Assembly: GCA_003478355.1 (NCBI GenBank)
Contig: QUFC01000009.1
Span: 42,265 to 106,264 of the forward strand
Direction of reading: 5' to 3'
From: Lachnospiraceae bacterium AM48-27BH
Lineage (GTDB): Bacteria; Bacillota; Clostridia; Lachnospirales; Lachnospiraceae
Length of the DNA stretch: 64,000 nucleotides
Position numbers and translations under genes: made by a program
Part shown: piece after piece, positions 47,844 through 64,000 of the stretch
Layout: each line of letters opens with the position of its first letter
How positions within the stretch are numbered: the stretch's first letter is position 1
Notes under the pieces: model-generated
The model's database searches: none
The model's input: only the letters and a program-made list of their open reading frames with translations
Told to the model about the DNA's origin: nothing

Positions 47844-47896
47844 GGACTTTTTGCGGCTTTTTTCGTGTTTTTTCTTTTTACTTTTTTCTGCCTTTT

Positions 47897-48218: not shown

Positions 48219-49229
48219 TTATCGCAAAATCACCTTGGCATTCCCCAGGATTTTTTCAATCTTACCCAGTTCTTCTTCCGTAAATGGTGCGCCCTTTAAC
48301 GCACCTAAATTAGCTAACAACTGTTTACTGCTGCTTGCGCCAACTAATACTGTCGTTACTTCCGGACGTCTTAAAATCCACCACAATGCCATCTGCGCCA
48401 ACGTCTGACCACGGTTCTTTGCAATTTCATTTAATTTCCGGATCTGTTCTAAATGTTCTTCTGAAAGATAACGGCCTGCCACGGTTGTTCCTTCCCTGGA
48501 AGCTCTGGAACCCGCCGGAATTCCATTTAAGTACTTATCCGTCAATGATCCCTGTGCCAACGGGCTGTAGGCGATACACCCCACGCCTTCTTCCTGCAGC
48601 ACATCCAACAGTCCATTTTCCACCCAACGCTCAAACATATTATAACGGGGCTGATGGATCAGACACGGCGTTCCATTGTTTCTTAAAATCTCAATGGCCT
48701 TCTTCGCCTCTTCTGCCTGATAGTTGGAAATACCCACATACAACGCCTTACCCTGTCTCACAATGTCTGATAATGCACCCATCGTTTCTTCCAGTGGTGT
48801 CTCCGGATCTGGACGATGGTGGTAGAAAATATCCACATAGTCCAGATTCATGCGTTTCAGGCTCTGGTCCAGACTGGCCATCAAATACTTTCTGGACCCC
48901 CAATTGCCATAAGGTCCCGGCCACATATCATAACCAGCTTTTGTGGAAATCACCATCTCATCCCGGTACGCAGACAGCTCTTCATGAAGAATTCTTCCGA
49001 AATTCTTCTCTGCCATTCCTTCCGCCGGTCTTCCATAATTATTAGCCAGATCAAAATGCGTGATTCCATGATCGAACGCGCAGGTAATGATTTCCTTCTG
49101 CTGATCCAATGGCTTTTCAAGTCCAAAATTCTGCCACAATCCCAAAGAGATCTGTGGAAGAAGCAGTCCGCTCTTTCCACAACGGTTGTATTTCATTTCC
49201 AAATAACGATTTTCTGCTGCCTGATACAT
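48219..49229 (-). CDS. Aldo/keto reductase (YghZ/GpR-like)
   Basis: A 336-residue NADPH-dependent reductase of the TIM-barrel AKR superfamily. The start MYQAAENRYLEMKYNRCGKS and SLGLWQNFG match the YghZ subgroup, which reduces L-glyceraldehyde 3-phosphate and methylglyoxal. The catalytic Asp/Tyr lie in FDLANNYG, with Lys in ISTKAGYDMW. A C-terminal NADP-binding motif is VLVGASSSKQL. AGGA precedes the ATG. An IS607 element ends only about 17 bases upstream of the start codon, so its original promoter has been displaced and transcription may now come from the element. Confidence 0.92.
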   Translation of the reverse strand: MYQAAENRYLEMKYNRCGKSGLLLPQISLGLWQNFGLEKPLDQQKEIITCAFDHGITHFDLANNYGRPAEGMAEKNFGRILHEELSAYRDEMVISTKAGYDMWPGPYGNWGSRKYLMASLDQSLKRMNLDYVDIFYHHRPDPETPLEETMGALSDIVRQGKALYVGISNYQAEEAKKAIEILRNNGTPCLIHQPRYNMFERWVENGLLDVLQEEGVGCIAYSPLAQGSLTDKYLNGIPAGSRASREGTTVAGRYLSEEHLEQIRKLNEIAKNRGQTLAQMALWWILRRPEVTTVLVGASSSKQLLANLGALKGAPFTEEELGKIEKILGNAKVILR

Positions 49230-49245
49230 CTGTTCCTGCCACTCA

Positions 49246-49420
49246 AAATGTGTGTAAATATACTCACATTGAGATAATGTAAACTCTCACAAGTTTTACT
49301 TACTGTTTCATCGTGTATGCTTTGGATTGACCAAAATCATATCTACTCACAAGTTCTTGTACACTCCACAGTCGTTAATTCCCGTGTAAGCCCACGGTAC
49401 ATACCTACGTTTGCGTTTAT
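49246..49420 (-). ncRNA. Candidate omega RNA (right-end guide RNA) of TnpB
   Basis: TnpB proteins use an RNA transcribed from the 3' end of tnpB through the element end, with the guide supplied by the flanking DNA. This noncoding tail has the expected place and orientation, contains hairpins such as CCGTG/CACGG and ACAAGAACTTGT, and ends at the terminal repeat. The implied guide would lie just below 49246, over the reductase ribosome site. Its extent is inferred. Confidence 0.45.
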
Positions 49421-50584
49421 TTATGCAACTTCGTAAGTCGTAGCATCTCTCAGATTAAGTGCAGCATTGAAATCTCTGTCTTCAATATAACCACAGTCAC
49501 ATTGGAAGATTCTGTCTGAAAGTTTTAAGTCTTTCCTGATAGCTCCGCAGCAGTGACAAGTTTTCGATGATGGATACCATCTGTCTACTACACGAAGTTC
49601 AATTCCGTTTTCCTTGCATTTCGCTTGAAGTTTTGTTCTAAATTCATAAAACTTCTGCGAAGCAACTGCCTTTGAAAGATGTTTGTTCTTCATCATTCCT
49701 GATACATTTAAATCTTCAATCGTTATATAAGATGGTTTGGTTTTCACCATCTCTGCGATTGTTTTGTTGATATAGTCAGTACGGATATCGTCTATTTTAT
49801 GATGAACTTTCTGTACCTTAAGCTTTTGTTTCTGTATATTCGCTCTTTGAGTGGACTCTCCTTCCTTTAAATTTTCATACTTTCGAGAAAGACTTCTCTG
49901 TTCCCGAATAAGCTGTTTTTCAAGTTTCTTTAATTTTGCGGATTTGTTAATGTTCTTATAAGTTTTACCATTCGAAACAATGGCAAAATCCTTTAATCCA
50001 AGGTCAATGCCAATTCCTTCATTGGAATTATCAGCTATCTTGTTATTTGGGATCTCTATAAGAACTGAAACATAGTATCGGTCAGCTTTTATTGAGACAT
50101 GACCGCTTTTCATCACATACCCGTCTTTGGTAGTAGGAACGTATCCTTTTTCTTTCATACGAACCCAACCAAGTGATGGAATATTCATTCTGTGTCTTTC
50201 GCATCGGCAATCCTTTGGATTATTCTTTACGAAATACATCTTCACATCAGATTTTCCCTTCTTTTTAAAATTAGGAAAAGCACTTTGATGTTTGAAAAAT
50301 CTGGTAAATGCGACACAGCCATTTTCGATTGAACGCTTTACAGATTTTGAACTGACTTCCTTCATCCATAGCTTATCTGGATTTTTAGGAAGATACTCAT
50401 TGTTCAGCCAGACACTAAAACTTTTACCGCTCATAAACTTTTCTCCATTGTCATGAAGTTCTTTGTTATGAGCGAGATAGAAGTTGTAAATATATCTACA
50501 AGCTCCTATTGTTTTACGAATCTTAACTTTCTGTTCCTCTGTCGGATTGATTTCCGTCTTGAAGCTCTTTAGCAATGTCCTCAT
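49421..50584 (-). CDS. tnpB: TnpB RNA-guided nuclease of IS607 element
   Basis: A 387-residue TnpB, the presumed ancestor group of Cas12. The RuvC acidic residues are intact in GIDLGLKDFAIVSNG, ITIEDLNVSGMM and DRDFNAALNLRDA, and the zinc finger has CHCCG and CDCG. An N-terminal helix-turn-helix/WED-like region precedes them. It overlaps tnpA by 62 bases in another frame. TnpB cuts DNA next to a short element-specific motif and helps retain the element after transposition. All catalytic residues being present suggests activity. Confidence 0.93.
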   Translation of the reverse strand: MRTLLKSFKTEINPTEEQKVKIRKTIGACRYIYNFYLAHNKELHDNGEKFMSGKSFSVWLNNEYLPKNPDKLWMKEVSSKSVKRSIENGCVAFTRFFKHQSAFPNFKKKGKSDVKMYFVKNNPKDCRCERHRMNIPSLGWVRMKEKGYVPTTKDGYVMKSGHVSIKADRYYVSVLIEIPNNKIADNSNEGIGIDLGLKDFAIVSNGKTYKNINKSAKLKKLEKQLIREQRSLSRKYENLKEGESTQRANIQKQKLKVQKVHHKIDDIRTDYINKTIAEMVKTKPSYITIEDLNVSGMMKNKHLSKAVASQKFYEFRTKLQAKCKENGIELRVVDRWYPSSKTCHCCGAIRKDLKLSDRIFQCDCGYIEDRDFNAALNLRDATTYEVA

Positions 50585-51185
50585 CCTTTTCTATTTGCTT
50601 TTTATACTTACGAAGCCCGTACAATCTACAGGAAAACTCATGGAGTATTGAAACAATATCCTGCACGAGTTCTTCTTGTGGTGATAATGCTTCATTATTT
50701 ACCACCATAATGGTTGTGTTAAACTTCATACAGAATTTTTCAAACCAATCATAACCAAACCTGATAAATCGATCTTTATGGGTTACAATTATGGTTTTGA
50801 TTTTTTGCTCCATTACTCCATCTAATAACTCATTCCACTTTTTACGATTGTAATTAAGTCCACTCCCATAATCTTCAATACATTGGTCTACAATCATTCC
50901 TTTGGCATTACAAAACTGTCTTAAAAATGCAACCTGGTTTTGTAAATCATCTTTTTGGTTTCTCGTAGACACTCTCGCATAAATAACTACTTGACGTTGG
51001 TCATTTTCGGTATTTATGCCTTTAAATTGAAGATACTGGTCGTAAGTGTAATAACGCCTGTCAGTTGGAGTTCGATTGGCTTTTAGAGTTCCTTCCCTAT
51101 CCCAGCGTTGCAATGTCTTAACAGATATGCCTAACAATTCAGCAAAATCTTTTGGCTTGTAATTTGTGATATTTGGTGTGTTCAT
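50523..51185 (-). CDS. tnpA: IS607-type serine recombinase TnpA
   Basis: A 220-residue transposase. The N-terminal MerR-like helix-turn-helix (DFAELLGISVKTLQRWDREG) binds DNA, and the catalytic resolvase domain begins VVIYARVSTRNQKDDLQNQV, with the nucleophilic serine in VSTRNQ. The arrangement of DNA-binding domain before the catalytic domain is diagnostic of IS607. These enzymes insert with little target specificity. One terminal repeat lies 16-36 bases upstream of its ATG and could be its binding site and promoter. Confidence 0.93.
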   Translation of the reverse strand: MNTPNITNYKPKDFAELLGISVKTLQRWDREGTLKANRTPTDRRYYTYDQYLQFKGINTENDQRQVVIYARVSTRNQKDDLQNQVAFLRQFCNAKGMIVDQCIEDYGSGLNYNRKKWNELLDGVMEQKIKTIIVTHKDRFIRFGYDWFEKFCMKFNTTIMVVNNEALSPQEELVQDIVSILHEFSCRLYGLRKYKKQIEKDEDIAKELQDGNQSDRGTES

Positions 51186-51287
51186 AATAGCTTACTCCTT
51201 TGAGTATATTTAAACACGTTTAGTCACATTCGTCAATTGTTTTAATTTCTTAACATTTTCTCCTTTTCATTTCTCATTACCACACAC

Positions 51288-52073
51288 CTATCGTCTATCT
51301 GATGTTTGCGCGTCTTCACTGCAATTCTCACCTAATACACATCTTTGGAATACCTGTCCGATGGGTTCTGTGATCACCAGATCCGCATGAGCTTCCTTTG
51401 CTGTCACTGACTTGTTGATCAAAACCAGCTTATTTCCCTCATAATAATCCACCAGTCCAGCCGCAGGATATACAGTCAGGGAGGTTCCGCCGATGATCAG
51501 CATATCCGCATGGCGAATAGCATTGACCGCCGCCGAAAGCACCTGCTGATCCAGTCCTTCTTCATATAATACCACATCCGGTTTAATGATTCCACCGCAG
51601 CTGCACCGAGGAATGCCCGCCGCATCTGCAACAGCTTCCAATCCATAAGCCTTTCCGCATCGCATACAATAATTCCGATGAATGGAACCATGAAGCTCCA
51701 GCACATTCTTACTTCCTGCCATCTGATGCAGTCCATCAATATTCTGGGTGATGACTGCTTTTAATTTTCCTTCCTGTTCCAGCTTCGCCAATGCCAGGTG
51801 CGCTGCATTCGGCTTTGCATTCCGGAAAATCATCTTGTTTTTATAGAAACGGTAAAATTCTTCTGGGTTTCTCATAAAAAAGCTATGGCTGATGATGGTC
51901 TCTGGCGGATAGGCATATTCCTGATTATACAAGCCATCCTGACTCCGGAAATCCGGTATTCCACTTTCTGTCGATACCCCCGCACCACCAAAAAACACGA
52001 TATGACTGCTCTCCTGTATCCACTGCTTTAAAATCTCTTCCTGCTTTACGTCCCGATCCTTTATCTCCTGCAT
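51288..52073 (-). CDS. NAD-dependent protein deacylase (sirtuin)
   Basis: A 261-residue Sir2-family enzyme that removes acyl groups from lysine using NAD+. Motifs are GGAGVSTESGIPDFRSQDG, ITQNIDGLHQMAG with the catalytic His in ELHGSIHRN, and four zinc cysteines (CMRCG, CSCGG). I chose the ATG at 52073, 8 bases after AGGAGG, over a GTG at 52082. The ORF before it, 52159-52434, reads in the same direction. Confidence 0.93.
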   Translation of the reverse strand: MQEIKDRDVKQEEILKQWIQESSHIVFFGGAGVSTESGIPDFRSQDGLYNQEYAYPPETIISHSFFMRNPEEFYRFYKNKMIFRNAKPNAAHLALAKLEQEGKLKAVITQNIDGLHQMAGSKNVLELHGSIHRNYCMRCGKAYGLEAVADAAGIPRCSCGGIIKPDVVLYEEGLDQQVLSAAVNAIRHADMLIIGGTSLTVYPAAGLVDYYEGNKLVLINKSVTAKEAHADLVITEPIGQVFQRCVLGENCSEDAQTSDRR

Positions 52074-52158
52074 CTCTGCCACCTCCTGTATGTCTTATGC
52101 CAGCCTTCTGCGTATGCAATTCATACACCGCATGAGCTTCTGCGTTCACAACATCCCG

Positions 52159-52434
52159 TCAGGTTTCTATTTTCCTACCATTCTGGACCTGCTCATTTAA
52201 CCACACCTGAGCCTGCTCCAGTCCGTCTTTATCAAATGGAAAATACCTGGTGATCTTTTCTTCGTCTGGCGTTGCAGCGGAGCACAGCTTTCCAAACCAG
52301 CAGATTGCCGCCAGCCGGTCTCCCTCTTCCTCACTGCTCTGCTTCTCCAGAACAAACCTCAGTTCTCCATCACTTCCTGTAAACCGGCTTTTTTTCAACA
52401 ATGGAATTCCCATGATGCCCTTCAGGTTTATCAT
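52159..52434 (-). CDS. Conserved-looking 91-residue protein
   Basis: GGAAGAAGA precedes the ATG at 52434; an internal ATG gives MGIPLLKKSRFTGSDGEL. The product has an aromatic-rich, acidic central region (ICWFGKLCSA, TRYFPFDKDGLEQAQ) and no membrane helix. It lies 15 bases after the PAP2 gene and 85 bases before the sirtuin. I do not recognise the family. Confidence 0.6.
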   Translation of the reverse strand: MINLKGIMGIPLLKKSRFTGSDGELRFVLEKQSSEEEGDRLAAICWFGKLCSAATPDEEKITRYFPFDKDGLEQAQVWLNEQVQNGRKIET

Positions 52435-52449
52435 TCTTCTTCCTTCTTT

Positions 52450-53091
52450 CTATCGATCTATCTCACGCAATGGGCGCCAACCATTATAAAGAAGCGTCAT
52501 CACCTCTGTCAGCAGCCATCCACACACTACATCAATCACCGAATGCTGCTTAATCAACATAGTAGACAAACAGATTGCCCAGGTCACTCCCCTGGAGATC
52601 CATTTCATCTTCTTATTATCCCGAAAACTACGACTCTGACAAATAATCCGGTGCACCGATACAGTACTGGAAACATGAATGGATGGACACACATTGTAAG
52701 GTGGATCCACAGACCGTAAAAAACGGACGATCTCCGCACAAAAATTATGCGTCGTAATCTCTCTCCTAAGATCCAGCCCATTAGGCCAAATAGCATAAAT
52801 CACCAGACAGATCGTTGCACCCCCTAACATGACAAAGCACAATTTCAGATAATCATAACGGCTTTTCAGCATAAACCAAATCATAAAAACCGGAACCCAT
52901 GCATACCACAGGAAATAGGGAATCACGAACCATTCACAAAATGGGATCCAATCGTCAACCGGACAATGAATGACCACCTTCGGTTCCTTCACCACCAGCT
53001 CCAAAAGCCCAAACCCCGCCAAAAATACAAACAGATACAGTCCCGCCAACGCATATTTATGTGTTTTGATCCAATGAAGCATACTGCACAT
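52450..53091 (-). CDS. PAP2 family membrane phosphatase
   Basis: A 213-residue protein with about six hydrophobic helices. It carries the phosphatase motifs NVCPSIHVSSTV (motif 2, catalytic His) and KQHSVIDVVCGW (motif 3). The first motif (KX6RP) is not obvious. Members dephosphorylate phosphatidic acid, undecaprenyl pyrophosphate or inositol phosphoceramide-like lipids. The 91-residue gene follows 15 bp later. Confidence 0.82.
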   Translation of the reverse strand: MCSMLHWIKTHKYALAGLYLFVFLAGFGLLELVVKEPKVVIHCPVDDWIPFCEWFVIPYFLWYAWVPVFMIWFMLKSRYDYLKLCFVMLGGATICLVIYAIWPNGLDLRREITTHNFCAEIVRFLRSVDPPYNVCPSIHVSSTVSVHRIICQSRSFRDNKKMKWISRGVTWAICLSTMLIKQHSVIDVVCGWLLTEVMTLLYNGWRPLREIDR

Positions 53092-53188
53092 GATTCCTTT
53101 CCATTCCAGCTTTTAAGCCAGACAACTGTTATTTCATTATGCTCATTATAACAAACACGTGTGAAAATTCCCATAGAAAGTTATTGCT

Positions 53189-53875
53189 TTAAAGAAGAAG
53201 TTTTCCCTTCACTTCCAAACCAATAATCCATGGCTGCTTCAATTCCAGAAGCTCCGTAATGCGCTTCTGTCTGGGGACACCAAGGACGATATTCGCCTTG
53301 AGTGTTCCCTTTTCTTTTTGGGAAAATTCAAAGCTGCGAATGTGAAATCCCATCTCTGAAATGCAGTTTTTCAGTTCCAACAGCTCACCCTGGCCACCGG
53401 CAATCTCTACGGTCAGTGAAGTCAGGGCTTCCCGATGCAGTCCTACGATGGAACCACGGCCAAGAAACATCTCCGCCAGCACCACAATGATCGAAGTGGC
53501 AACACCCAGATAGATCATCCCCGAGCCGACTGCCAGACCGACACCCACTGTCGCCCAGATCCCTGCCGAAGTGGTAATACCGCTGACGTTTTTATTTCTG
53601 GCAATGATTATTCCAGAACCCAGAAAACCGATCGCTGTAACCACACCAGCCGCCACACGGGACGGATCAACTCTCACATATTCACTCACCACATCGGTAA
53701 AACCATATTTGGAAATCATGACCATCAGTGCCGATGCCACGCCCACTACGGTATGGGTACGCACTCCCGCCGGTTTCCGCCTGTTTTCCCGCTCATGTCC
53801 AATGATTCCTCCGCAGAATCCCGCAATCAGCAGTCTGCCAATCATCATCAGTTCCTTCTCCAGTGCAAATTCCAT
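53189..53875 (-). CDS. MgtC/SapB family membrane protein
   Basis: A 228-residue protein with four to five N-terminal helices and the family signature GFCGGIIGHERENRRKPAGVRTHTVVG (shortened here to its start), followed by VAAGVVTAIGFLGSGII. The C-terminal cytoplasmic domain (about 150-228) is ACT-like. The family is linked to magnesium limitation and virulence in other bacteria; its molecular role is uncertain. It is preceded by AAGGGG. Between it and 54003 I see nothing. Confidence 0.88.
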   Translation of the reverse strand: MEFALEKELMMIGRLLIAGFCGGIIGHERENRRKPAGVRTHTVVGVASALMVMISKYGFTDVVSEYVRVDPSRVAAGVVTAIGFLGSGIIIARNKNVSGITTSAGIWATVGVGLAVGSGMIYLGVATSIIVVLAEMFLGRGSIVGLHREALTSLTVEIAGGQGELLELKNCISEMGFHIRSFEFSQKEKGTLKANIVLGVPRQKRITELLELKQPWIIGLEVKGKLLL

Positions 53876-54002
53876 GTAACCCCTTCTTCCGTTCTTTTTT
53901 CATGTCGATTCATTCACACATCGCTTGTATGATTTGTAAGATATGTTCGCAAGGAAATCTGCACTGGTCAAGATTCTATTTTCAGATATTTTTGAACTAT
54001 TT

Positions 54003-54836
54003 TCAGATTATGCAGATCAAACCATCATACGCTGCGTGAATCCCATATTTGCTTCCTTCTTGTTCCAATTCCTGCTGCAGCATTCCACAATTATGTGAAA
54101 AATGGGTTGCATATACTTTCGTACTTTTAGAGTAACAGCCATGCTTTTGTAACTCCTGTAAAAATTCCCAGTTTTCCGAAAATCCCATATGCCGTCCTTC
54201 TCTTGCTTTTCTAGCACCAAAGGTACAATCCAGACTGATCAAGTCAAAAGGCTTATTTCCCAGATGCGTATAGGTCTCCTCCAGAAGCAGCCCCGTATCA
54301 TTTCCATACAAAAACCGGCTGTTTTCATCCTCAATCAGATAGATCAGGCAGTCCTCCTGCGGATCATGCTGTGCAGGAATCGCAGTAACCGTAAGTCCAC
54401 ACAGCTTCACCGTTTCATACGGCACCAATTCATGAAACACAATCGACGGATTTTCCTCCATCCCAAACTCTTCCCTCAGGCTTCTCCTTCCAAATCCACA
54501 GACCTTTCTATTTCCATATACCAGAAGTGGACGCTCCCAGGCCGGTTTACAGTAATCAGCTGCACTTCGTCTGGTCAATTCAGCCCCATCAAAATGATCC
54601 GTATGAGAATGTGTTACAAACACAGCTTCCAACTGGCTCAAATCCAGGTTCCACCGCATTTTTTGATAGTAAATATCCGGTGTAAGATCAATTAGAATCT
54701 GATCATTGATCAATACGCTGCTGCGGCATCTGGCTTCTGCACTTCCTGCTCTTGCCGTTTTCCGACACAGTTCACAGGTACAAAACATCGCCGGGATTCC
54801 TTCTGCTGCAGCCGTTCCGAGATACTGTATTTTCAT
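54003..54836 (-). CDS. PhnP-like metallo-beta-lactamase-fold hydrolase
   Basis: A 277-residue zinc hydrolase. The N-terminus has MKIQYLGTAAAEGIPAMF and the Cys-x-Cys-x-x-Cys zinc site CTCELC typical of PhnP, the phosphoribosyl cyclic phosphodiesterase. The metal motif is THSHTDHFDG, with later His residues in IPAQHDPQ and ATHFSHNCG. The ATG overlaps the stop of the phosphodiesterase gene (TGATG), so the two are translationally coupled. With no phosphonate genes nearby, it more likely acts on a cyclic or ester phosphate made during breakdown of the imported sugar. Confidence 0.85.
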   Translation of the reverse strand: MKIQYLGTAAAEGIPAMFCTCELCRKTARAGSAEARCRSSVLINDQILIDLTPDIYYQKMRWNLDLSQLEAVFVTHSHTDHFDGAELTRRSAADYCKPAWERPLLVYGNRKVCGFGRRSLREEFGMEENPSIVFHELVPYETVKLCGLTVTAIPAQHDPQEDCLIYLIEDENSRFLYGNDTGLLLEETYTHLGNKPFDLISLDCTFGARKAREGRHMGFSENWEFLQELQKHGCYSKSTKVYATHFSHNCGMLQQELEQEGSKYGIHAAYDGLICII

Positions 54837-56161
54837 CAGGCATCGGTCTCCTTCCATACACCTTTTACTGCCTTTCCGTCCATGTCTGCATCCGGGGTAA
54901 TCCCCAGCCAGGTCAGCATCGTAGGAAGAATATCCGTGATGCACATCTTGTCAATGGTTTTTGCCTGGACATCCTTTCCATAGCTGAAAAATACAGTACG
55001 ATATCCATCCTCATCCGGAAGATATCCGTGAAGTCCTTTATAGTGACTGACTACTGTATAGTGATGTTCTTTGTCTGCCTCTGCTTCATATCCTGTTTCA
55101 AAAGAATAATCATTTGCCGCTTCCAGCACATACTCTGCCTTCTGATCACAACCATAAGGAGCAAATTCTTTCCGTCCCATGACTGCTTTGACTCCAGGTA
55201 CTGTCTTAAAATATTCTGCTGCCATCCGGCACGCCTCTCTGTCATCCTCCGATTCTGCATTTCTCGGATACAGATACGCCATTCCGTCACAGCCATCCAT
55301 ATAAACCTGATACTCTTTTAAATAACCGTCCTGATAAGTGCTGTATCCCATATCCTGAAGTGCCATATTTCCGTGGATTGCATAGGTTACATCCTTTTGT
55401 CCATGATCGCCGGTCACCATAAGCGTCACATTTTCGTTCCGTTCCTGTCTCCGATCACAGTATTCCATCAAACGTCCTACAAATCGATCATATGCCCGTA
55501 AATATCCATGTATCCGGCCTCCCTCAATGCCAACCTGGTGTTTCTCGTCATCCAGGCCATAAATATGCAGCATTGCAATATCAAAATCTTCTTTTTCAAT
55601 CGCATGCTCAAAGCAATGAATCATCGCCTGATCCAGATCCGGCTGTTTTCCATAAAACCAGGCCTTTGGCAATTCTCTTCTGGAAAGCATCGTCCGGATT
55701 GCAAATCCCGGTGTTCCATATTTTCGCATCATATTTAACTGGGCAAAAAAAGTACGAGTATTCCATTCTCTCGGTTTTGCCGGAGAAAGTTCTGGCATGG
55801 AATATGCCATTTTCGCCCCACCACTGACCGGCCATGACAGCGATAATACCTTTTTTCCATTCTCAGCAGCATAATCCCATACTGCTTTCCGTTTTAACGC
55901 GTATGCGTAGGAATTCCACTTTGGATGCTTCTCAAATGGAAGAAACTGATAGTTATTCACAACCCGATGAGAATTGGGTACGCAGCCTGTCGCTATGCTG
56001 GCATGGCTTGGAAAAGTCAGAGATGGATACACGGAACATTCGTGTGGACACCATGCCCCCCGCTTCATGATCTTGGCAAAATTCGGTAATTTCTTTAAGT
56101 ATTCCAGATCGCTCTCTCCAAGAGCATCCAAAGAAACCAGAAGTATTTTCTTTCGTTCCAT
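54836..56161 (-). CDS. Alkaline phosphatase-like nucleotide pyrophosphatase/phosphodiesterase
   Basis: A 441-residue member of the NPP/alkaline phosphatase superfamily. The nucleophile is T49 in YPSLTFPSHASIATG, metal ligands include D12 in SLDALGESD and the VTGDHGQKDV and HGLHGYLPDE regions. There is no signal peptide, so it acts in the cytoplasm, unlike secreted alkaline phosphatases. It lies 12 bp after the ABC permease gene, coupling hydrolysis to uptake. Confidence 0.85.
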   Translation of the reverse strand: MERKKILLVSLDALGESDLEYLKKLPNFAKIMKRGAWCPHECSVYPSLTFPSHASIATGCVPNSHRVVNNYQFLPFEKHPKWNSYAYALKRKAVWDYAAENGKKVLSLSWPVSGGAKMAYSMPELSPAKPREWNTRTFFAQLNMMRKYGTPGFAIRTMLSRRELPKAWFYGKQPDLDQAMIHCFEHAIEKEDFDIAMLHIYGLDDEKHQVGIEGGRIHGYLRAYDRFVGRLMEYCDRRQERNENVTLMVTGDHGQKDVTYAIHGNMALQDMGYSTYQDGYLKEYQVYMDGCDGMAYLYPRNAESEDDREACRMAAEYFKTVPGVKAVMGRKEFAPYGCDQKAEYVLEAANDYSFETGYEAEADKEHHYTVVSHYKGLHGYLPDEDGYRTVFFSYGKDVQAKTIDKMCITDILPTMLTWLGITPDADMDGKAVKGVWKETDA

Positions 56162-56173
56162 GATTCTTCTCCT

Positions 56174-57006
56174 TTATCCTTTTACTGCACCCGCTGTCAA
56201 ACCACCGATGATCTTTTTCTGCATACTCAAATAGAAGATCATGATTGGTAGCATAGAAAGCAGGAATGATGCGAAGATCAAGCCAAAATCTGTATGATAT
56301 GCAGTCTTAAAATTGTATACATACAAAATCAATGTCCAGAATTTGGAAGACTTGTTTAGTACCAAAAGCGGAAGCTGGAAATCATTCCATACCCAGAGTG
56401 CATTCTGAATTGCAACAGTTGCCAGAATTGGTTTCATGAGCGGAAGAATTACCTGCCAATAAGTACGGAAAAATCCTGCACCATCGATATAAGCTGCCTC
56501 CTCCATATCCGGTGGAATGGATTGCAAATATCCCGCACACAAAAACACACCTTCACAGGTAGAACCAGCTAAGTAAAGAACAATAATTCCAGGTACATTC
56601 ATCATGCCCAGTTTACTGGTGATCATGATTAATGGAATCATTTTGGCCTGAAACGGCACAAACAGTCCAATGATCAAAAAATAATAAAAATAACGCATAA
56701 ACCGGTTCTGAGGCATTGTTCTGGAAACACCGTAAGCCGTGATCGGAAGCATCAGTGTACTGATGCTTAAAACACTGCTGCAATAATCACAGAATTTCCG
56801 AAAGCAAATCCAAGCTCCGGTTTGCCAAACAACGTCTTAAAATTGTCCAAATACAGTGGAATCGGAAGGGAAAACCAGTTATCTGCAATCTGAAGATTTG
56901 ACTTAAAAGCCGTAATCAGCACCAGGAACAGCGGCATGGCAATCAGCAGGACACCGCAAACCAGCACTGCGTATTCAATTCCTTTGATAATCCGTCTTTT
57001 GCTCAT
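56174..57006 (-). CDS. ABC sugar transporter permease, MalG type (frameshifted)
   Basis: About 277 residues when restored, with six helices and the EAA loop EEAAYIDGAGFFRTYWQVILP that docks to the ATPase. The frame breaks near 56766 where one T is missing: AAVF should read AAVFLSISTLMLP. I chose the ATG at 57006, 8 bases after AGGAGG. It follows the other permease by 12 bp. No ATP-binding gene is present in the operon, so a shared MsmK-type ATPase encoded elsewhere is probably used. Confidence 0.88.
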
Positions 57007-57018
57007 TGCTGTCACCTC

Positions 57019-57912
57019 CTAGTAAATTCTTTTTCTATTTGACCATACAATCTGAATAAACGAAACAATGCATACAATTACTGCAAGAATTAATGCCTCT
57101 GCCATTGCTACACTAAGCCGTCTCTCCACAAAACCGTGATTATAGATCAGCATTGCCATACTCTCAGTTGCGCCTGCCGGACCACCCTGAGTCATGGACA
57201 TGATCAGATCAAATACCATCAAGCCCTGTTTCAAGGTTAAAACAAATACCATGGTAATGGTCGGTACCAGAAATGGAATGGTGATGTAACGGAATTTCTG
57301 CCATGCCGTCGCACCATCTAAGGACGCCGATTCCAAAAGTTCCTCTGGAACCGTCTGGAGTCCGGCCATAAATAGCACTGTTGGAATCGCCAGTCCCTGC
57401 CACACCGCTACAAAAAGAATTGCTAAAATCGCCGTTTTCGGCCTGGAAAGAAGGCTGATCTCCCAGCTTTGAAAGCCAAGAGAGGTTCCAAGCTGCGGAA
57501 TTCCTTTTGTAATAATGCTGTTAAACACCAGCCCCATGGTAAGCAGCGGCAGCACTGCCGGGAAGAAAAAAGCACCTCTGAAAAAGGTCTTTCCTTTTAG
57601 ATTACTGTTTAAGATCAGTGCCAGGATCATACTCAATGCCAGAATGCAGATCACCAGCATCGTACTGTATTTTGCATTGAACAGCAATGCTTTGGTAAAA
57701 CGGGAATTGCTAAATACTGTTTTATAATTAGACCATCCTACGAAATTCAATTTTTTATTAATTCCGTTATAATCAGTAAAACTGTAAAAAATACCGCATA
57801 TAATCGGTGCAATAAAAAACATGATGTATAAAATCGTCTGCGGAAGTGCAAACAGACTGAATACGATTGATTGTTTCCGATAAAAATTCATGGTTCGCTT
57901 CTGTCTCTTCAT
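57019..57912 (-). CDS. ABC sugar transporter permease, MalF type
   Basis: A 297-residue inner-membrane permease with six helices and the EAA motif (EELLESASLDGATAWQKFRY). It belongs to the carbohydrate-uptake family 1. I chose the ATG at 57912, 9 bases after GGGGAG; a slightly earlier ATG lies against the ribosome site. It is the second gene of the importer operon, after the binding protein. Confidence 0.9.
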   Translation of the reverse strand: MKRQKRTMNFYRKQSIVFSLFALPQTILYIMFFIAPIICGIFYSFTDYNGINKKLNFVGWSNYKTVFSNSRFTKALLFNAKYSTMLVICILALSMILALILNSNLKGKTFFRGAFFFPAVLPLLTMGLVFNSIITKGIPQLGTSLGFQSWEISLLSRPKTAILAILFVAVWQGLAIPTVLFMAGLQTVPEELLESASLDGATAWQKFRYITIPFLVPTITMVFVLTLKQGLMVFDLIMSMTQGGPAGATESMAMLIYNHGFVERRLSVAMAEALILAVIVCIVSFIQIVWSNRKRIY

Positions 57913-57983
57913 CCGTAACATCTCCCCTTATGAAAACAGGACAGGAACCCGGCCAACGCCGCTGGCTCCCGCCCTGCTGACTT

Positions 57984-59300
57984 TTATTCTTCGTTTGCGA
58001 AATACTCTACGCTGATTGCGTCGGTATCATTCATAAACGCATCAACATCTTTGGTCATAACCAACTGCTGAAGCGGTGCTTCCCAGCTCTTACGGAAACC
58101 TGCTGGCCAGTAAACGGATGGACTGAAGAAATACTCGCCTGCGTTTAACTTATCTGCCATAGACTGTAACTGTGGTCTGTTGTAATTCACACCTTTGATG
58201 ACTGGAGGGTTCTGCTCATTGTCTGCATAGAACTGTGCAGTCTCAGTTGTGGACATAAACTCTAAGAATTTCAGTGCAGCTTCCTTATTTTCACATGCTT
58301 CTGTGATAGAAAGCGCGGTATCAATACTTGCAGGAACCATGCTCTCGCCGCCTGTTGGATTCGGAATGGCAATCATTTCAATATCGATATCTGGATTTAA
58401 GTTCAGAATGGTCTGGATTCCCCAGCTTCCGTATAATAACATCGCTGCTTTTCCGGTTGCCATATCATTTAAGGAATCCTCAGATCCAGTACCTAAGGTA
58501 TCGGCCTGACCATACTCACGGATCTGAAGCATAGCCTCTGCCAGTGTCTTCATCTCAGGTTCATCTGCCCATTTGCTCTCACCCTTGCCGACCTTCTTAA
58601 ACTGAGATGTGATATCGTTATTAATGATTCCGCTCATACGCTCTGCCTGCTGTCCCAAAGGTTCTGTAGATTTATCGCAGAATGTAAATGCCTGAATTCC
58701 TTTTTCCTGAAATGCCTTTGCTGCATCAATCAACTGATCCCATGTCTGAGGTTTTTCAATTCCATTTTCCTCAAATAATTGATTGTTTACGATCAATCCA
58801 TATGCACTCATCGCCATGGAAAGAGAATAATCTTTTCCATCATACTGTGCAATCGCTCTGGTTCCCTCTGATACCTGATCCATAAATGCCTGATCAGAAA
58901 TATCCATCAAGGCTCCATCTCTCATCAGATCCCGGTAAAATTTCTCTGCTGGCCAGATGGTTACGATATCCGGATAATCATTGGATGCAATTCTTGTTAC
59001 CAGAGCAGTCTCCGGATCTGGTACACAGGTCAGCTCAATATGGATATCTGGGTTTTTCTCTTCAAACTGGCCGATCATCTCCTGAAAAATATCCACCACA
59101 TCCGTTTTCTGCAGATAAAGTTCCAATGTTACCTTGTCACCACTTTCCGTACTCTTGGTATCTTCCGTTTTGGCTGCTTCGGTCTGTCCACCACCATTAT
59201 CCTTTGCTGCCTCTGTTGCTGCCGGCTGACTAGTTCCACATCCGACTAACATCATGCCTGCCAACGCTGCTGCTAACACTCTGCTTGTTCTTTTTCTCAT
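57984..59300 (-). CDS. ABC transporter sugar-binding lipoprotein
   Basis: A 438-residue extracellular solute-binding protein. The signal peptide (RVLAAALAGMMLVGC) has its lipobox cysteine at residue 21, followed by a Thr/Glu/Lys linker and the MalE-like fold (VTLELYLQKTDVVDIFQEMI). It is the first gene of the leftward operon and its product defines specificity. I chose the ATG at 59300, preceded by AAGGAGG. Ligand unknown; the operon's phosphodiesterase and the divergent sulfatase suggest a charged sugar or glycero-type conjugate. Confidence 0.92.
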   Translation of the reverse strand: MRKRTSRVLAAALAGMMLVGCGTSQPAATEAAKDNGGGQTEAAKTEDTKSTESGDKVTLELYLQKTDVVDIFQEMIGQFEEKNPDIHIELTCVPDPETALVTRIASNDYPDIVTIWPAEKFYRDLMRDGALMDISDQAFMDQVSEGTRAIAQYDGKDYSLSMAMSAYGLIVNNQLFEENGIEKPQTWDQLIDAAKAFQEKGIQAFTFCDKSTEPLGQQAERMSGIINNDITSQFKKVGKGESKWADEPEMKTLAEAMLQIREYGQADTLGTGSEDSLNDMATGKAAMLLYGSWGIQTILNLNPDIDIEMIAIPNPTGGESMVPASIDTALSITEACENKEAALKFLEFMSTTETAQFYADNEQNPPVIKGVNYNRPQLQSMADKLNAGEYFFSPSVYWPAGFRKSWEAPLQQLVMTKDVDAFMNDTDAISVEYFANEE

Positions 59301-59396
59301 GCTTCTTTCCTCCTTGCACTTCTGCATATATGTGTTACGTTGTTTCTTTTTGACGCTCTTTCTGTTACACGTTCTTAAGTTGTATCTTATGTCCTT

Positions 59397-59425
59397 ATAT
59401 TAGCAAGGAATACTTACTAAGTCAA
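59397..59425 (-). promoter_or_regulatory. Promoter of the ABC importer operon with overlapping operator
   Basis: Minus-strand TTGACT and TAATAT have a 17-bp spacer. The spacer contains TTAGTAAGTA, which recurs in the divergent promoter region at 59568, so it is a likely ROK repressor site. Confidence 0.75.
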
Positions 59426-59529
59426 TATCTTTTTGAAAAAAATTTGTTTATTTTTTATGTTATCAAGTTTTATTTACTAAATTCTTCGTGCATTTTGCCT
59501 GCTGTTTTTTAACATTTTCTAGTTTATCC

Positions 59530-59558
59530 TTTACTTTTTTCCAAAACAAAGCTATACT
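59530..59558 (+). promoter_or_regulatory. Promoter of the sulfatase operon
   Basis: TTTACT and TATACT have a 17-bp spacer and lie 50 bases before the sulfatase ATG. Confidence 0.65.
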
Positions 59559-59565
59559 TAATGTA

Positions 59566-59587
59566 TATTTTAGTAAGTGTACTTAAC
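59566..59587 (+). promoter_or_regulatory. Candidate ROK operator
   Basis: TTTTAGTAAGTGTACTTAAC has dyad symmetry around AAGT-gt-ACTT and shares TTAGTAAGT with the site in the opposite promoter. A weaker TTTACTAAAT lies at about 59470. Sited between the start of transcription and the sulfatase gene, it would block the plus-strand operon. Confidence 0.55.
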
Positions 59588-59607
59588 TTTATAAAAGGAG
59601 GCACACC

Positions 59608-61101
59608 ATGACTGACTTTTTATTGAAAAAACGCCCCAATATCGTTTTGATCATGTGTGACCAGATGCGTGGAGACTGTTTAGGAATCGCCGGGCATCCA
59701 GACGTCAAAACGCCATATTTGGATTCTCTCGCTGCAGAAGGCACTTATTTTCCAAATGCATACAGTGCCTGTCCTAGCTGCATTCCCGCCAGAGCTGCGC
59801 TGTTTACCGGTCTTTCCCAAGAACACCATCACCGAGTTGGTTATCAGGATGGTATTACCTGGGATTACCCGCATATGCTTCCTGCTGCCTTGTCCGATGG
59901 AGGCTATCACACGGAAATGGTTGGCAAAATGCATGTGCATCCACCATTATATCGCTGTGGTTTTCAAAACATGACCCTTCATGATGGCTATATTGGTTAT
60001 TACCGAAACCCCAATGCACCAGCCAAAGAACACCAGCTTTTTCACGATAGTTACCTTCACTGGTTAAAGTGCCGATGCGGCTATGATGCTGATGTCAATG
60101 ATGCAGGTTTAGAATGTAATTCTTTTCTCGTAAAACCATGGCCTTACGATGAAATGTCCCACCCAACCAACTGGACGGTCAGTAAAAGTATTCGTTTTCT
60201 GGAACAACGAGATCGCAGTCAGCCATTTTTCCTAATGACATCTTTTGTACGTCCTCATCCACCTCTGGATGCACCAAAGGATTATCTGGACTTCTATATG
60301 CAGATGGATCTCCACGAACCTGCCATGGGCGACTGGGCACATTTTGAAAAAGAGCGGGTACAGGCAGGCCGGATGTACGACTCCCCGTATGGAACAGACG
60401 ACCCGACTCTTCGCCGCACTGCCATGGCCGGGTATTATGCCTGCATTACGCATATGGACCACCAGATCGGACGCTTGATCCAGGCATTGTATCGAGAACG
60501 CATTTTGGAAGATACCATTATTTTATTTACTTCCGACCACGGTGAACTGCTCTTTGACCATGGACTTTTCCGCAAAGTTCAGCCATTCCAGGGAAGCATC
60601 CGAATCCCATTCCTGATCCGAGTTGGAAAAAATCTAATCGATTACCCGCAAACCGCCATTTGTGATGATTTAGTCGAATTAAGAGATATTCTTCCGACTA
60701 TTTTAAGTGCTACCAGGATACCGCTCACCTTCCCAACGGACGGTTTTGATCTAATTCCTGCTCTTTACGGAAAACCACATCAACAGCGGGATTTTCTCCA
60801 CGGCGAACACAGCGGCGGCAACTTATCCAATCAATACATCGTGACCAAAGAAGATAAATATATCTGGTACTCCCAGACCGGAAAAGAATTGTACTTTGAC
60901 TTAAAATCAGATAAGATAGAAGTAAATAACCGAATGGAAGATCCATCTGTCAGCCAACGAATCAAATACCTTCGCAATCTGTTGATCACACAACTGACAG
61001 GACGAGAAGAAGGCTACAGTGATGGTCAAAACTTAGTCATTGGATGCAAACCAGTAACTATGCTCTCATCTTCCCATTCACCAGATCGGGGGAACGTATG
61101 A
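59608..61101 (+). CDS. Sulfatase-family hydrolase
   Basis: A 497-residue alkaline-phosphatase-superfamily enzyme of the sulfatase type. The formylglycine motif is C58-I-P-A-R62 in ACPSCIPARAALFTG, metal ligands include D18 (MCDQMRGD) and FTSDHGELLFDHGLF. Cys at position 58 means maturation needs an anaerobic radical SAM maturase, which is not in this window. No signal peptide is seen, so it acts after uptake in the cytoplasm. Related enzymes also hydrolyse phosphonate or phosphate monoesters. AAGGAGG precedes the ATG. Its stop overlaps the ROK start. Confidence 0.88.
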   Translation: MTDFLLKKRPNIVLIMCDQMRGDCLGIAGHPDVKTPYLDSLAAEGTYFPNAYSACPSCIPARAALFTGLSQEHHHRVGYQDGITWDYPHMLPAALSDGGYHTEMVGKMHVHPPLYRCGFQNMTLHDGYIGYYRNPNAPAKEHQLFHDSYLHWLKCRCGYDADVNDAGLECNSFLVKPWPYDEMSHPTNWTVSKSIRFLEQRDRSQPFFLMTSFVRPHPPLDAPKDYLDFYMQMDLHEPAMGDWAHFEKERVQAGRMYDSPYGTDDPTLRRTAMAGYYACITHMDHQIGRLIQALYRERILEDTIILFTSDHGELLFDHGLFRKVQPFQGSIRIPFLIRVGKNLIDYPQTAICDDLVELRDILPTILSATRIPLTFPTDGFDLIPALYGKPHQQRDFLHGEHSGGNLSNQYIVTKEDKYIWYSQTGKELYFDLKSDKIEVNNRMEDPSVSQRIKYLRNLLITQLTGREEGYSDGQNLVIGCKPVTMLSSSHSPDRGNV

Positions 61102-62297
61102 AACAAACGATTAATACCAGACATGTCCGTGCCATTAACCAGAGAACCATTCTGGATGCGATCTATCAGCATCCAGACGGAATCTCCCGTGCAGAACTGG
61201 CCCGAAGTCTAAACATGAGTAAACCTTCCATGGCTGATAATGCCACAGCTCTTCTTGATATCGGAATCATCGAAGAAATCGGAGAAGATGCAAACACTGG
61301 AAAACTGGGGCGAAAACCGGTTCTATTAAGTTTCCGCTCAGATTTTAAATACATTGCAACCATCGATTTTTATTTATACGACACCTATTTTGCCTTGAGT
61401 AATCTTCGCAGCGAAAAACTAAATAAATTCAAGATCCAGCAAACTCCTATGACAGATTTCAAACTATGGATCCAGATGTGTGCCAATGCAATTTCTGTTC
61501 TGATGAATGCCCAAAATATCTCTTCCGATAACCTGGCTGCCATCGCTATTTCTCTTCCAGGAATTATAAATCCTGAGGAGAAGAAATACATCGTCAGTTT
61601 AAAATATGGCGAATTCGATATGGCTTATCTGGAAGATTATTTTCAGACACATTTTCACGTGCCTGTATTAATCCGCAATAGTACCAATGCTGCTGCACTT
61701 GGCGAATTCTACTATGGTGCAGGGAAAAACTGCAAAAATCTGCTGTACATCAGCTGCGGACAGGGTGTTGGCTCTGGACTTATTTTAAACGGAAAGCTTT
61801 ATGAAGGAAGTCATCTGGCTTCCGGCGAATTCGGAAATTTTCTGGTTCCACCTTCTCTTCCCGGTGAAAAGCCGCGAAAACTGGAAGATCGGATTTCTAT
61901 CGAAGGCGTATTAAGTGCCATCAATGCCAGTCTCCCTGATTCTGTCCTGCAAAAACTTCCAGATGGCGAAACAACGGTTGATTTTTCTTCTATGATAGAA
62001 CTCTGGAAAGCAAAAGATCCGTATATTCGTAGCTTTACGCATAAAACCTTCTCTGAACTTGGATGGGCCATCAGCTGTCTCCAGTCCGTTATTGATTGTG
62101 AGAAAATTATTATTGGCGGAGAATATCTTGCTTTTGCCGAAGAAATGCTCCCCACGATTACCCAGATTCTTCATGAGACTTCTTCGCTTCCGGTAGAAGT
62201 GGCAGTCTCTGATCTGTGGAATACCGGCGGAACTCTCGGCCTGATTGCCACCTGTCAAGAATACTATTTCAATAAAATATGCAGCCTTGAAGGATAA
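61098..62297 (+). CDS. ROK family transcriptional repressor
   Basis: A 399-residue regulator with an N-terminal winged helix (RAELARSLNMSKPSMADNAT) and a ROK sugar-binding domain with SLPGIINPEEK, NSTNAAALGEFYYG and GQGVGSGLI. The zinc-binding cysteines usual for glucose-binding ROK kinases are not evident, fitting a regulator rather than an enzyme. I chose the ATG at 61098, with GGGGGA before it; it overlaps the sulfatase stop by four bases. It probably represses both divergent operons until an imported sugar derivative binds. Confidence 0.9.
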   Translation: MKQTINTRHVRAINQRTILDAIYQHPDGISRAELARSLNMSKPSMADNATALLDIGIIEEIGEDANTGKLGRKPVLLSFRSDFKYIATIDFYLYDTYFALSNLRSEKLNKFKIQQTPMTDFKLWIQMCANAISVLMNAQNISSDNLAAIAISLPGIINPEEKKYIVSLKYGEFDMAYLEDYFQTHFHVPVLIRNSTNAAALGEFYYGAGKNCKNLLYISCGQGVGSGLILNGKLYEGSHLASGEFGNFLVPPSLPGEKPRKLEDRISIEGVLSAINASLPDSVLQKLPDGETTVDFSSMIELWKAKDPYIRSFTHKTFSELGWAISCLQSVIDCEKIIIGGEYLAFAEEMLPTITQILHETSSLPVEVAVSDLWNTGGTLGLIATCQEYYFNKICSLEG

Positions 62298-62310
62298 TTC
62301 AAGGCTGCAT
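62279..62310. promoter_or_regulatory. Perfect 13-bp hairpin at the ROK-MFS junction
   Basis: ATGCAGCCTTGAA pairs with TTCAAGGCTGCAT across a GGATAA loop that contains the ROK stop codon. The MFS ribosome site AAGGAG begins at the next base. No T-run follows, so it is not a standard terminator. It may set the relative output of the two genes or mark an RNA cut. Confidence 0.6.
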
Positions 62311-62324
62311 AAGGAGCATTCACT

Positions 62325-63560
62325 ATGAATACGATTCTTTTTTTACTCTGTTGGATTTCTTATTTTTCCACTTACATCGGGAGGCAGAATTATTCTGCGG
62401 TTATGGCAGAAATTATCGCTTCTGAAGGTTATTTAAATCAGGCTTGTGGAATGGTTGGAACTGGTTTCTTCATCTGTTACGGAGCCGGTCAATTAGTCAG
62501 CGGTTTTTTAGGTGATCGGATTTCTCCAAAATGGATGATTTTTACTGGATTAACTGGTTCTGCCATTGCCAATGGCATAATGTCCCTTCTCCATTCTCCT
62601 CAGTCTATGACGATAGCATGGTGTATCAATGGTTTATTCCAATCTATGACCTGGTCACCAATTCTCCGGGTCTTTGCCGAATATCTCCCTGCTAAAGAGC
62701 AAAAAAATGCCTGCGTTAACATTGCTACAACCTATCCCGCTGCAGTCTTTTTAACTTATCCACTTTCTTCGCTCATGATTTATTTATGGGGATGGCGTAG
62801 TATGTTTATCTTCACCTGTACCTTTATAGGACTTGTCGCTGTTCTCTGGCTGTGTCTGTTTTCTTTCCTCGAAAAAAAGCTAGAATTCCAGCGTCAGCAA
62901 AATCACAAAGAGTTGTTGTCCGAATCGTCAACCACTTCCGAAAAATCCAGTTCTCATTCGATTCCAGTGTGCCTGGTAATCGCAATTTTCTTTATCTGTG
63001 GCAGTTTAATTGTTCAGGGAGCGCTTCGCGACGGAGTTACCAGCTGGGTACCTTCCTATCTCTCCAACACCTACCATGTAGGAACTTCTGTGGCTATTTT
63101 TGCCACCACCCTGCTGCCCGCTATTAACCTGCTGGGTGTCTATGCTGCCAATTTCATTTTCCGGAAATGGAAGAAAAATGAGATTCAGACCAGCACGATC
63201 CTGTTTGCAGGCTCCTTAATATTTCTGGCCTGTCTGATCTTAACTGAGGGAATCCATCTGGTACTATCACTCATCTTTTTCTCCCTGGTCACTTCCTGTA
63301 TGATGGGAATCAACCTGATGCTAGTCAGCTTTATCCCCACAAACTTTTTAAAACGGGGACGGGTATCCACAGTTTCCGGAATTTTAAACTCTACTGTCTA
63401 CATCGGAAGCAGTATATCCACATTTGGTCTGGGAGTTGTAGCCGACTTATTTGGCTGGTCTATCTTAATTCGTTTCTTGTGTCTGTTTGCCGCCATGGGA
63501 CTAGTTTTCTGCCTCTGTGCCATTCCCGAATGGAAGAAATTTTCTTCCACACTAGGATAA
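62325..63560 (+). CDS. MFS transporter of the organophosphate:phosphate antiporter type
   Basis: A 411-residue protein with twelve hydrophobic helices and the early motif STYIGRQNYSAVMAE, typical of the GlpT/UhpT/UhpC group that exchanges sugar phosphates or glycerol-3-phosphate for phosphate. A central loop (about 190-215) is polar. It is the third gene of the sulfatase-ROK operon. It may import a phosphorylated substrate or export phosphate, sulfate or a product. Confidence 0.85.
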   Translation: MNTILFLLCWISYFSTYIGRQNYSAVMAEIIASEGYLNQACGMVGTGFFICYGAGQLVSGFLGDRISPKWMIFTGLTGSAIANGIMSLLHSPQSMTIAWCINGLFQSMTWSPILRVFAEYLPAKEQKNACVNIATTYPAAVFLTYPLSSLMIYLWGWRSMFIFTCTFIGLVAVLWLCLFSFLEKKLEFQRQQNHKELLSESSTTSEKSSSHSIPVCLVIAIFFICGSLIVQGALRDGVTSWVPSYLSNTYHVGTSVAIFATTLLPAINLLGVYAANFIFRKWKKNEIQTSTILFAGSLIFLACLILTEGIHLVLSLIFFSLVTSCMMGINLMLVSFIPTNFLKRGRVSTVSGILNSTVYIGSSISTFGLGVVADLFGWSILIRFLCLFAAMGLVFCLCAIPEWKKFSSTLG

Positions 63561-63606
63561 CTAATACGATTTACGCTTATAATGTCAAATTACGGTTTTT
63601 CATTTC

Positions 63607-64000
63607 CTAGAACAATTCATCCTCTTCTTCCTCGCCGCTCTTTTCCAGATCCACGATCCGGATTGCTTCTCTGGACTGCTCAATGACAGATTCCAGAGTT
63701 TCGCGGGTGATATCGCCTTCTAAAATGGTCAGGCCGATCACCAGAGCTAAGTTCACACCAGCTACCAGAGTGGTGTTTGAACGATCCAAATAGGTGTACA
63801 TGGTGCTGTTGACGCTACCGCCATACATATCAGAAATCAGGATCGCCTGATCTTTTTCTCCTACGGTCTGGAAAAATGCATCCAGAGCATCGAGAGTATG
63901 AGAAAATCTCTGTAAATAAGATTCTTCTATGATAATTAAGAGCGATAAGCTTGTGAATCGGGCTTGTCGTTCTTGTTTTATATATAACAGTTGCTTACGG
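63607..64000 (-). CDS. PTS mannose-family EIIA domain, partial
   Basis: The 3' part of an EIIA of the mannose family, which carries phosphate from HPr to EIIB during sugar uptake. Family-like segments are DAFFQTVGEKDQAILISDMY, GGSVNSTMYTYL and TLVAGVNLALVIGLTI. The acidic end is EEEEDELF. The frame stays open to the right edge, but beyond about 63910 it does not resemble the usual start with its phospho-accepting histidine, so another frameshift or an unusual N-terminus is possible. Confidence 0.75.
   Translation of the reverse strand, partial: RKQLLYIKQERQARFTSLSLLIIIEESYLQRFSHTLDALDAFFQTVGEKDQAILISDMYGGSVNSTMYTYLDRSNTTLVAGVNLALVIGLTILEGDITRETLESVIEQSREAIRIVDLEKSGEEEEDELF

What the first reader, a model, noticed from the sequence alone, without database searches (positions are those of the whole stretch)
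54003..63560. Divergent catabolic locus joining ABC uptake, cytoplasmic phosphodiesterase, PhnP-like hydrolase, sulfatase and an OPA transporter
Three hydrolases that attack phosphate or sulfate esters flank one importer and one ROK repressor. The sulfatase and the NPP-type phosphodiesterase lack signal peptides, so esters are apparently imported whole and opened inside. This differs from the usual outside-first strategy of gut sulfatase systems. The combination suggests a specific sulfated or phosphodiester-linked glycan or glycerol conjugate as substrate, not previously known to me.
Basis: partly seen in the sequence, partly recalled or inferred. Interest (0 to 1): 0.7.

Follow-up and report, generated by a model that had tools for sequence, protein, structure and literature searches.

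The report
Conserved cytoplasmic ester-removing import cassette
Bacteria from two distant phyla share the same eight-gene cassette that apparently imports a small sugar-like molecule and removes its sulfate and phosphate esters inside the cell; the gene set is real and conserved, but what it eats is still unknown.

The parts
57984..59327 (-). Substrate-binding lipoprotein of a carbohydrate ABC importer, RafE-like
57019..57921 (-). ABC permease A (MalF/UgpA type)
   Evidence: PF00528; 81% and 64% identical to orthologues in L001 and L002
56174..57006 (-). ABC permease B (MalG/UgpE type), interrupted in this window: first frame ends at stop 56769-56767, second piece 56752-56174
   Evidence: one open frame in L001 and L002
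54836..56161 (-). NPP-type (PF01663) cytoplasmic phosphodiesterase of the alkaline phosphatase superfamily
54003..54836 (-). PhnP-like metallo-beta-lactamase-fold hydrolase
   Evidence: PF12706; best PDB match PhnP 3g1p, with the metal-site motifs aligned; ATG overlaps the NPP stop
59608..61101 (+). Cys-type S1 sulfatase of the EfAS/BT1918 group, no signal peptide
   Evidence: NCBIfam PRK13759 583 bits, cut-off 481; EfAS 9koq 377.6 bits, BT1918 7oz8 290.9 bits; D18, Q19, C58, R62, K107, H109, H217, D310, H311, K323
61044..62297 (+). ROK-family transcriptional repressor; likely true start 61098
   Evidence: PF00480 4e-31 and winged HTH; orthologues at the same place
62325..63560 (+). MFS transporter related to the organophosphate:phosphate antiporters
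   Evidence: PF07690; TIGR00881 120 bits, below cut-off 408; profile matches SLC37A4 and GlpT best
59400..59420 (.). Conserved imperfect palindrome, putative ROK operator on the importer side
   Evidence: best-conserved 20-mer of the three intergenic regions: 5 mismatches in total; 60 shuffles gave at best 7, mean 10.25; aligned
59570..59590 (.). Second, weaker related half-palindrome near the sulfatase start; putative second operator
   Evidence: aligned TAGTAA...TTACTT-like segments in three loci; not tested against chance by itself

Best explanation
This is one catabolic unit controlled by a ROK repressor, probably spread by horizontal transfer. The RafE-type lipoprotein captures an oligosaccharide-sized, ester-bearing molecule, and the two permeases import it intact, powered by an ATPase encoded elsewhere. 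In the cytoplasm the formylglycine sulfatase removes a sulfate from a sugar, the NPP enzyme cleaves a phosphodiester, and the PhnP-like enzyme opens a cyclic phosphate or cleaves a second diester. The OPA-type carrier probably exchanges a released or scavenged sugar phosphate against phosphate. The inducer releases the repressor from palindromic sites between the two arms. Shown: the gene set, its conservation in three loci, catalytic residues, folds, cytoplasmic location by sequence in the window, and the conserved palindrome. Inferred: transfer, formylglycine maturation, the ATPase, the order of reactions, the role of the OPA carrier, what the repressor binds, and that one substrate carries both ester types.
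For: Same eight genes, order and orientation in the window and in both genomes whose NPP is at least 48% identical; the other 7 of 9 scanned relatives, at most 31% identical except short pieces, lack the set. Flanks differ. Linkage in the protein database: of 51 NPP clusters, 12 share an exact longest-contig length with one of 120 listed MBL clusters and 9 with one of 48 binding-protein clusters; jittered null means 0.32 and 0.06, maxima 3 and 2. Conserved palindrome in the divergent promoter region. Intact catalytic residues of sulfatase, NPP and MBL. RafE-like binding protein. A sulfatase maturase above cut-off in both genomes that carry the full locus, against 2 of 14 control genomes. Sulfatase next of kin among solved structures are EfAS, whose best tested model substrate is a sulfate (PMC12421950, parts 1-3 of 6 read), and BT1918, a 3S-GlcNAc sulfatase (PMC10154620, passage).
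Against: No glycosidase, phosphorylase or sugar kinase lies among the eight genes, so how the sugar enters metabolism is not explained by them. EfAS also hydrolyses phosphate and phosphonate esters, so the sulfatase may not see sulfate. The permease frameshift means the window copy may not import. Only three loci could be read in full. A first pattern for the palindrome gave 2 matches in the window, a count reached by 13 of 100 shuffles, so the case for the operator rests on cross-genome conservation. No ligand is known for any member.
Confidence: 0.55

Rival explanations
1. All-phosphorus version: the 'sulfatase' works as a phosphodiester or phosphonate monoester hydrolase, and the cassette takes up and cleaves purely phosphorylated molecules (phosphoglycans, glycerophospho-sugars). 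Three P-O hydrolases plus an organophosphate carrier then form one theme.
For: The sulfatase shares the fourth metal-ligand histidine with EfAS and phosphonate monoester hydrolases; EfAS clusters with phosphonoester hydrolases and has phosphatase and phosphonatase activity (PMC12421950); the other two hydrolases and the carrier are phosphate-type by family.
Against: The model sulfate substrate of EfAS is favoured about five- to sevenfold. BT1918, a carbohydrate sulfatase, has the same DQ, KxH and DHG pattern in the alignment. A sulfatase maturase is present in both full-locus genomes. One close relative sits beside a maturase-like radical SAM gene and what look by eye like NahK and GalE genes.
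Confidence: 0.22
2. Sulfated-sugar importer with passengers: the core is sulfatase plus ABC importer, as in other Lachnospiraceae; NPP, MBL and OPA act on a different phosphorylated nutrient that happens to share the regulator.
For: 9 of 15 fetched sulfatase relatives have a sugar-type ABC nearby and none of the 15 has this NPP, MBL, ROK or OPA by tblastn at E 1e-5. In 3 of these (L040, L048, L051) the binding-protein gene lies about 250 bases from the sulfatase and is divergent from it.
Against: The ABC genes beside the relatives are only 23-35% identical, so they are not the same importer.
Confidence: 0.15
3. Phosphate or sulfur scavenging rather than carbon catabolism: the cassette strips Pi and sulfate from diverse esters.
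For: Three ester hydrolases, no carbon-processing enzyme among the eight genes.
Against: ROK (sugar-type) control, RafE-type binding protein.
Confidence: 0.06
4. Chance neighbours: two unrelated operons that happen to be divergent.
For: None beyond the mixed gene families.
Against: Full synteny in two other genomes of two phyla with different flanks.
Confidence: 0.02

Closest known systems
Mn-dependent arylsulfatase EfAS of Enterococcus faecium (PDB 9KOQ)
   Same: Best PDB match, 377.6 bits over residues 6-483; the ten active-site residues named in the paper align identically
   Different: The window enzyme sits in a conserved import cassette; the NCBIfam Mn_arylsulf exception model is not reached (431 of 850 bits); metal and substrate untested
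Carbohydrate sulfatase BT1918, family S1_46, 3S-GlcNAc (PDB 7OZ8)
   Same: Second PDB match, 290.9 bits, the next being 141.6; shared DQ, KxH, DHG and RK pattern
   Different: The 7oz8 chain reads Ser where the window has the catalytic Cys. BT1918 is periplasmic in a Bacteroides heparin pathway (PMC10154612, passages); subfamily of the window enzyme not assigned here
ENPP/NPP phosphodiesterases (XacNPP, ENPP5, ENPP6, ENPP7)
   Different: About 20% identity; intracellular; own clade: full-length relatives step from 41% to 28-29% identity
PhnP cyclic phosphodiesterase
   Same: MBL metal motif, CxCxxC motif and the late histidines align
   Different: 76.6 bits against a cut-off of 272; no PhnJ found in either genome with the full locus (one is a MAG of unstated completeness)
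RafE-type oligosaccharide ABC importers
   Different: 25% identity; ligand unknown; no alpha-galactosidase among the eight genes
Sulfatase + sugar ABC loci of other Lachnospiraceae
   Same: Apparently cytoplasmic sulfatase 51-57% identical, sugar ABC nearby in 9 of 15
   Different: No NPP, MBL, ROK or OPA orthologue in those 15 stretches; the ABC genes are distant

Membership tests
S1 formylglycine sulfatase (PRK13759 / EfAS group) | Score above the curated cut-off | tested here: met
   583 vs 481 bits
S1 formylglycine sulfatase (PRK13759 / EfAS group) | C-x-P-x-R motif and metal and substrate residues | tested here: met
S1 formylglycine sulfatase (PRK13759 / EfAS group) | Cys to formylglycine conversion; sulfate ester hydrolysis | not testable with these tools
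   A maturase gene over cut-off is present in 2 of 2 full-locus genomes; no genome is held for the window itself
NPP phosphodiesterase (PF01663) | Pfam match and ENPP fold | tested here: met
NPP phosphodiesterase (PF01663) | Two-metal ligands, Thr nucleophile and Asn | tested here: met
   the roles of these residues are recalled
NPP phosphodiesterase (PF01663) | Diesterase rather than monoesterase activity | not testable with these tools
   none
PhnP (TIGR03307 equivalog) | Curated cut-off | tested here: not met
   76.6 vs 272.25 bits
PhnP (TIGR03307 equivalog) | C-P lyase pathway in the same genome (PhnJ) | tested here: not met
   0 of 2 full-locus genomes; among 14 controls only E. coli was found; the window's own genome could not be tested
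PhnP (TIGR03307 equivalog) | MBL metal motif plus CxCxxC and late His | tested here: met
   alignment; the roles of these residues are recalled
Organophosphate:Pi antiporter (PgtP/GlpT/UhpT) | Curated cut-offs of TIGR00881, glpT, UhpT | tested here: not met
   120 of 408, 53.5 of 633, 46.9 of 497 bits
Organophosphate:Pi antiporter (PgtP/GlpT/UhpT) | Relatedness to OPA structures and the early Arg | tested here: met
   SLC37A4 and GlpT are the best profile matches; R20 aligns with an Arg of SLC37A4; the role of that Arg is recalled
RafE-type carbohydrate binding protein | Fold and lipobox | tested here: met
RafE-type carbohydrate binding protein | Oligosaccharide binding | not testable with these tools
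   none
ROK repressor | ROK domain with N-terminal winged HTH | tested here: met

The most novel reading that the evidence does not exclude
The cassette is a dedicated cytoplasmic pathway for small glycans that carry both a sulfate and a glycosyl phosphodiester, for example fragments of protist or fungal phosphoglycans met in animal guts. The sulfatase uncovers a hydroxyl, the NPP enzyme cuts the diester, and the PhnP-like enzyme opens the sugar 1,2-cyclic phosphate that such diesters tend to form; the OPA carrier balances phosphate. This would be a new class of intracellular phosphoglycan catabolism shared between Clostridia and spirochaetes by horizontal transfer. The substrate chemistry in this reading is recalled and inferred, not from any call.
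Probability: 0.2. Interest if true: 0.75.

Novelty: new variant of a known kind. Interest (0 to 1): 0.5.

Why it matters
A conserved eight-gene unit with a cytoplasmic sulfatase, two phosphodiesterase-type enzymes and an oligosaccharide-type importer points to a nutrient that I did not find in the sulfated-glycan schemes looked at (passages of PMC10154612). Because the same unit occurs in Breznakiella homolactica strain RmG30, which has a complete chromosome, induction, binding and growth tests are directly possible there. If the substrate carries both ester types, it would reveal a glycan class met by bacteria of two phyla, probably in animal guts (habitat inferred from the organism names).

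Tried and rejected
Rejected: chance adjacency. No sign of phage carriage (viral-contig scan: 63 stretches matched a pattern, 0 encode a relative) or plasmid carriage (DNA search: none; protein search: 6 records, 5 listed, best listed identity 26.8%). C-P lyase phosphonate pathway not supported (0 of 2 genomes with PhnJ).

Led nowhere: NPP relatives of about 29-32% identity in other Lachnospiraceae genomes (L053-L057). In the two examined by eye (L053, L055) the neighbours look like housekeeping genes, so they say nothing on function. L004 has a 27% NPP beside a distant sugar ABC, only suggestive. Counting binding-protein residues invariant in the clade did not single out a clearly anionic-ligand pocket. 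Paper searches (20 of 593 papers listed; 4 of 4; 6 of 6; 1 of 1) listed no title or abstract start that describes this gene set; that is a statement about those four listings of the held library only.

Not done: no SulfAtlas subfamily assignment; no search for the ATPase; no sulfatase homologue search of the protein database; no look at 3 of the 18 sulfatase relatives' wider surroundings (G331, G349, G134), because one fetch takes 20 stretches and I did not fetch again; no tree to test horizontal transfer; no whole-genome view of the window's own organism, and its species and habitat are not known to me.
Full report
What is there. The region 54003-63560 holds eight genes in two divergent arms. 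Leftward from 59327: a binding lipoprotein, two permeases, an NPP-type enzyme (PF01663) and an MBL-fold hydrolase whose best sequence match among solved structures is PhnP. Rightward from 59608: a Cys-type sulfatase, a ROK repressor and an MFS carrier related to organophosphate antiporters. The MBL ATG at 54836 overlaps the NPP stop, and the ROK gene probably starts at 61098, overlapping the sulfatase stop. The second permease is interrupted in this window (stop at 56769-56767), while both orthologues are open; whether this is a mutation or an assembly error cannot be told.

Conservation. A pattern scan of the GTDB r220 contigs with the NPP alignment gave 24 stretches, of which 9 encode a relative and 2 carry the full locus: L001, a MAG labelled Enterocloster bolteae, and L002, the Breznakiella homolactica chromosome. 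In both, all eight genes occur in the window's order and orientation. Identities to the window for L001/L002 are OPA 65/42, ROK 57/42, sulfatase 75/61, binding protein 71/62, permease A 81/64, permease B (second piece) 92/79, NPP 68/48, MBL 61/49%. The flanks differ (in L001 a GH3-like and a GGDEF-like gene, in L002 ProS-like and AAA-like genes, named by eye), so the eight genes are the unit. The other 7 of the 9 relatives lack the set; one, L004, has distant permeases (tblastn at E 1e-8). The locus is rare: in 397 sampled genomes of the L001 family only the L001 genome and one distant NPP pass E 1e-100 (the distant one lacks the set), and in 194 genomes of the Breznakiella order only itself passes E 1e-80. 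All 4 genomes held for the L001 genus pass E 1e-80, but 3 only through NPPs of 31-32% identity without the set. The pattern scan needs exact short peptide matches, so it can miss members.

Linkage in metagenomes. The NPP search found 56 proteins at E 1e-20: 51 at 41-96% identity, and 5 others (one at 33% over 41% of the query, three at 28-29%, and one, P0054, at 73% over only 21%). Exact longest-contig lengths are shared with an MBL cluster (best 120 of 2266 listed) in 12 of 51 cases and with a binding-protein cluster (48 listed) in 9; lengths jittered by up to 30 bases gave means of 0.32 and 0.06 and maxima of 3 and 2. Equal lengths are indirect evidence of shared contigs.

Regulation. The three intergenic regions (280, 292 and 418 bases) share one stretch best: 20 bases at window 59401-59420, with 5 mismatches in total to the other two. 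Of 60 dinucleotide shuffles none did better than 7. It is an imperfect palindrome. A first pattern made from it gave 2 matches in the window, a count reached by 13 of 100 shuffles. A looser pattern at up to 2 mismatches matches within the intergenic regions only: 2 places in the 64 kb window, 2 in L001 and 1 in L002 (shuffles reaching the strand-counted totals: 1, 0 and 3 of 100). Since the patterns come from the site, these counts show placement, not significance. A weaker related site lies by the sulfatase start (59570-59590). That ROK binds there is inferred.

Location. In the window the sulfatase and NPP ORFs have no start upstream of the ones used and begin at the catalytic domain, so they are cytoplasmic. 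In L001 and L002 the nearest Met gives the same, but longer sulfatase ORFs exist there. A maturase above cut-off is present in both full-locus genomes and in 2 of 14 control genomes. This is not exceptional for the subfamily: 18 further genomes of 397 carry a relative at E 1e-120 (two of these matches hold one in-frame TAA), 51-57% identical in the 15 compared, with the same catalytic residues except Ala for Pro in the motif of 10 and Glu for Gln in 1. 16 of 18 have an in-frame Met close to the domain start, and the other two apparent TTG/GTG starts; start sites were not verified, and several have longer upstream frames. Of the 15 whose surroundings were fetched, 9 have a sugar-type ABC, in 3 closely divergent, and none has the NPP, MBL, ROK or OPA of this locus.

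Interpretation. The best reading is import of an ester-bearing, oligosaccharide-sized molecule followed by cytoplasmic removal of sulfate and phosphate esters. Which ester comes first, and whether one molecule carries both, is inference. The main rival makes the sulfatase a phosphoester or phosphonate hydrolase. The absence of glycosidases among the eight genes means the product must be handled by genes elsewhere, or the sugar part is a monosaccharide.

Novelty. Importer, sulfatase, NPP, MBL, ROK and OPA are each known kinds. The fixed combination, its cross-phylum conservation and its unknown substrate make it a new variant of a known kind.

Noticed in passing
window 56174-57006 (-): Second ABC permease gene is interrupted (stop at 56769-56767, open again from 56752) although one open frame in both orthologous loci; mutation or assembly error.
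   Followed up: partly
window 49421-51185 (-): A TnpB-like ORF and a MerR-HTH serine-recombinase ORF overlap, as in IS607-type elements (named by eye), about 3 kb from the cassette.
   Followed up: no
window 46001-64000: G+C falls from about 45-52% in the first 46 kb to 39-46% here, in keeping with acquired DNA.
   Followed up: no
   Followed up: partly
L004 4069-9312 (Angelakisella MAG): A 27% identical NPP lies after distant sugar ABC permeases and before a binding-protein-like and a DeoC-like gene (by eye): another NPP + sugar ABC pairing.
   Followed up: partly
L053, L055 (also L003): A separate NPP-like family (about 30% identity); in L053 and L055 directly after what looks by eye like a RarA AAA ATPase; apparently housekeeping.
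   Followed up: partly
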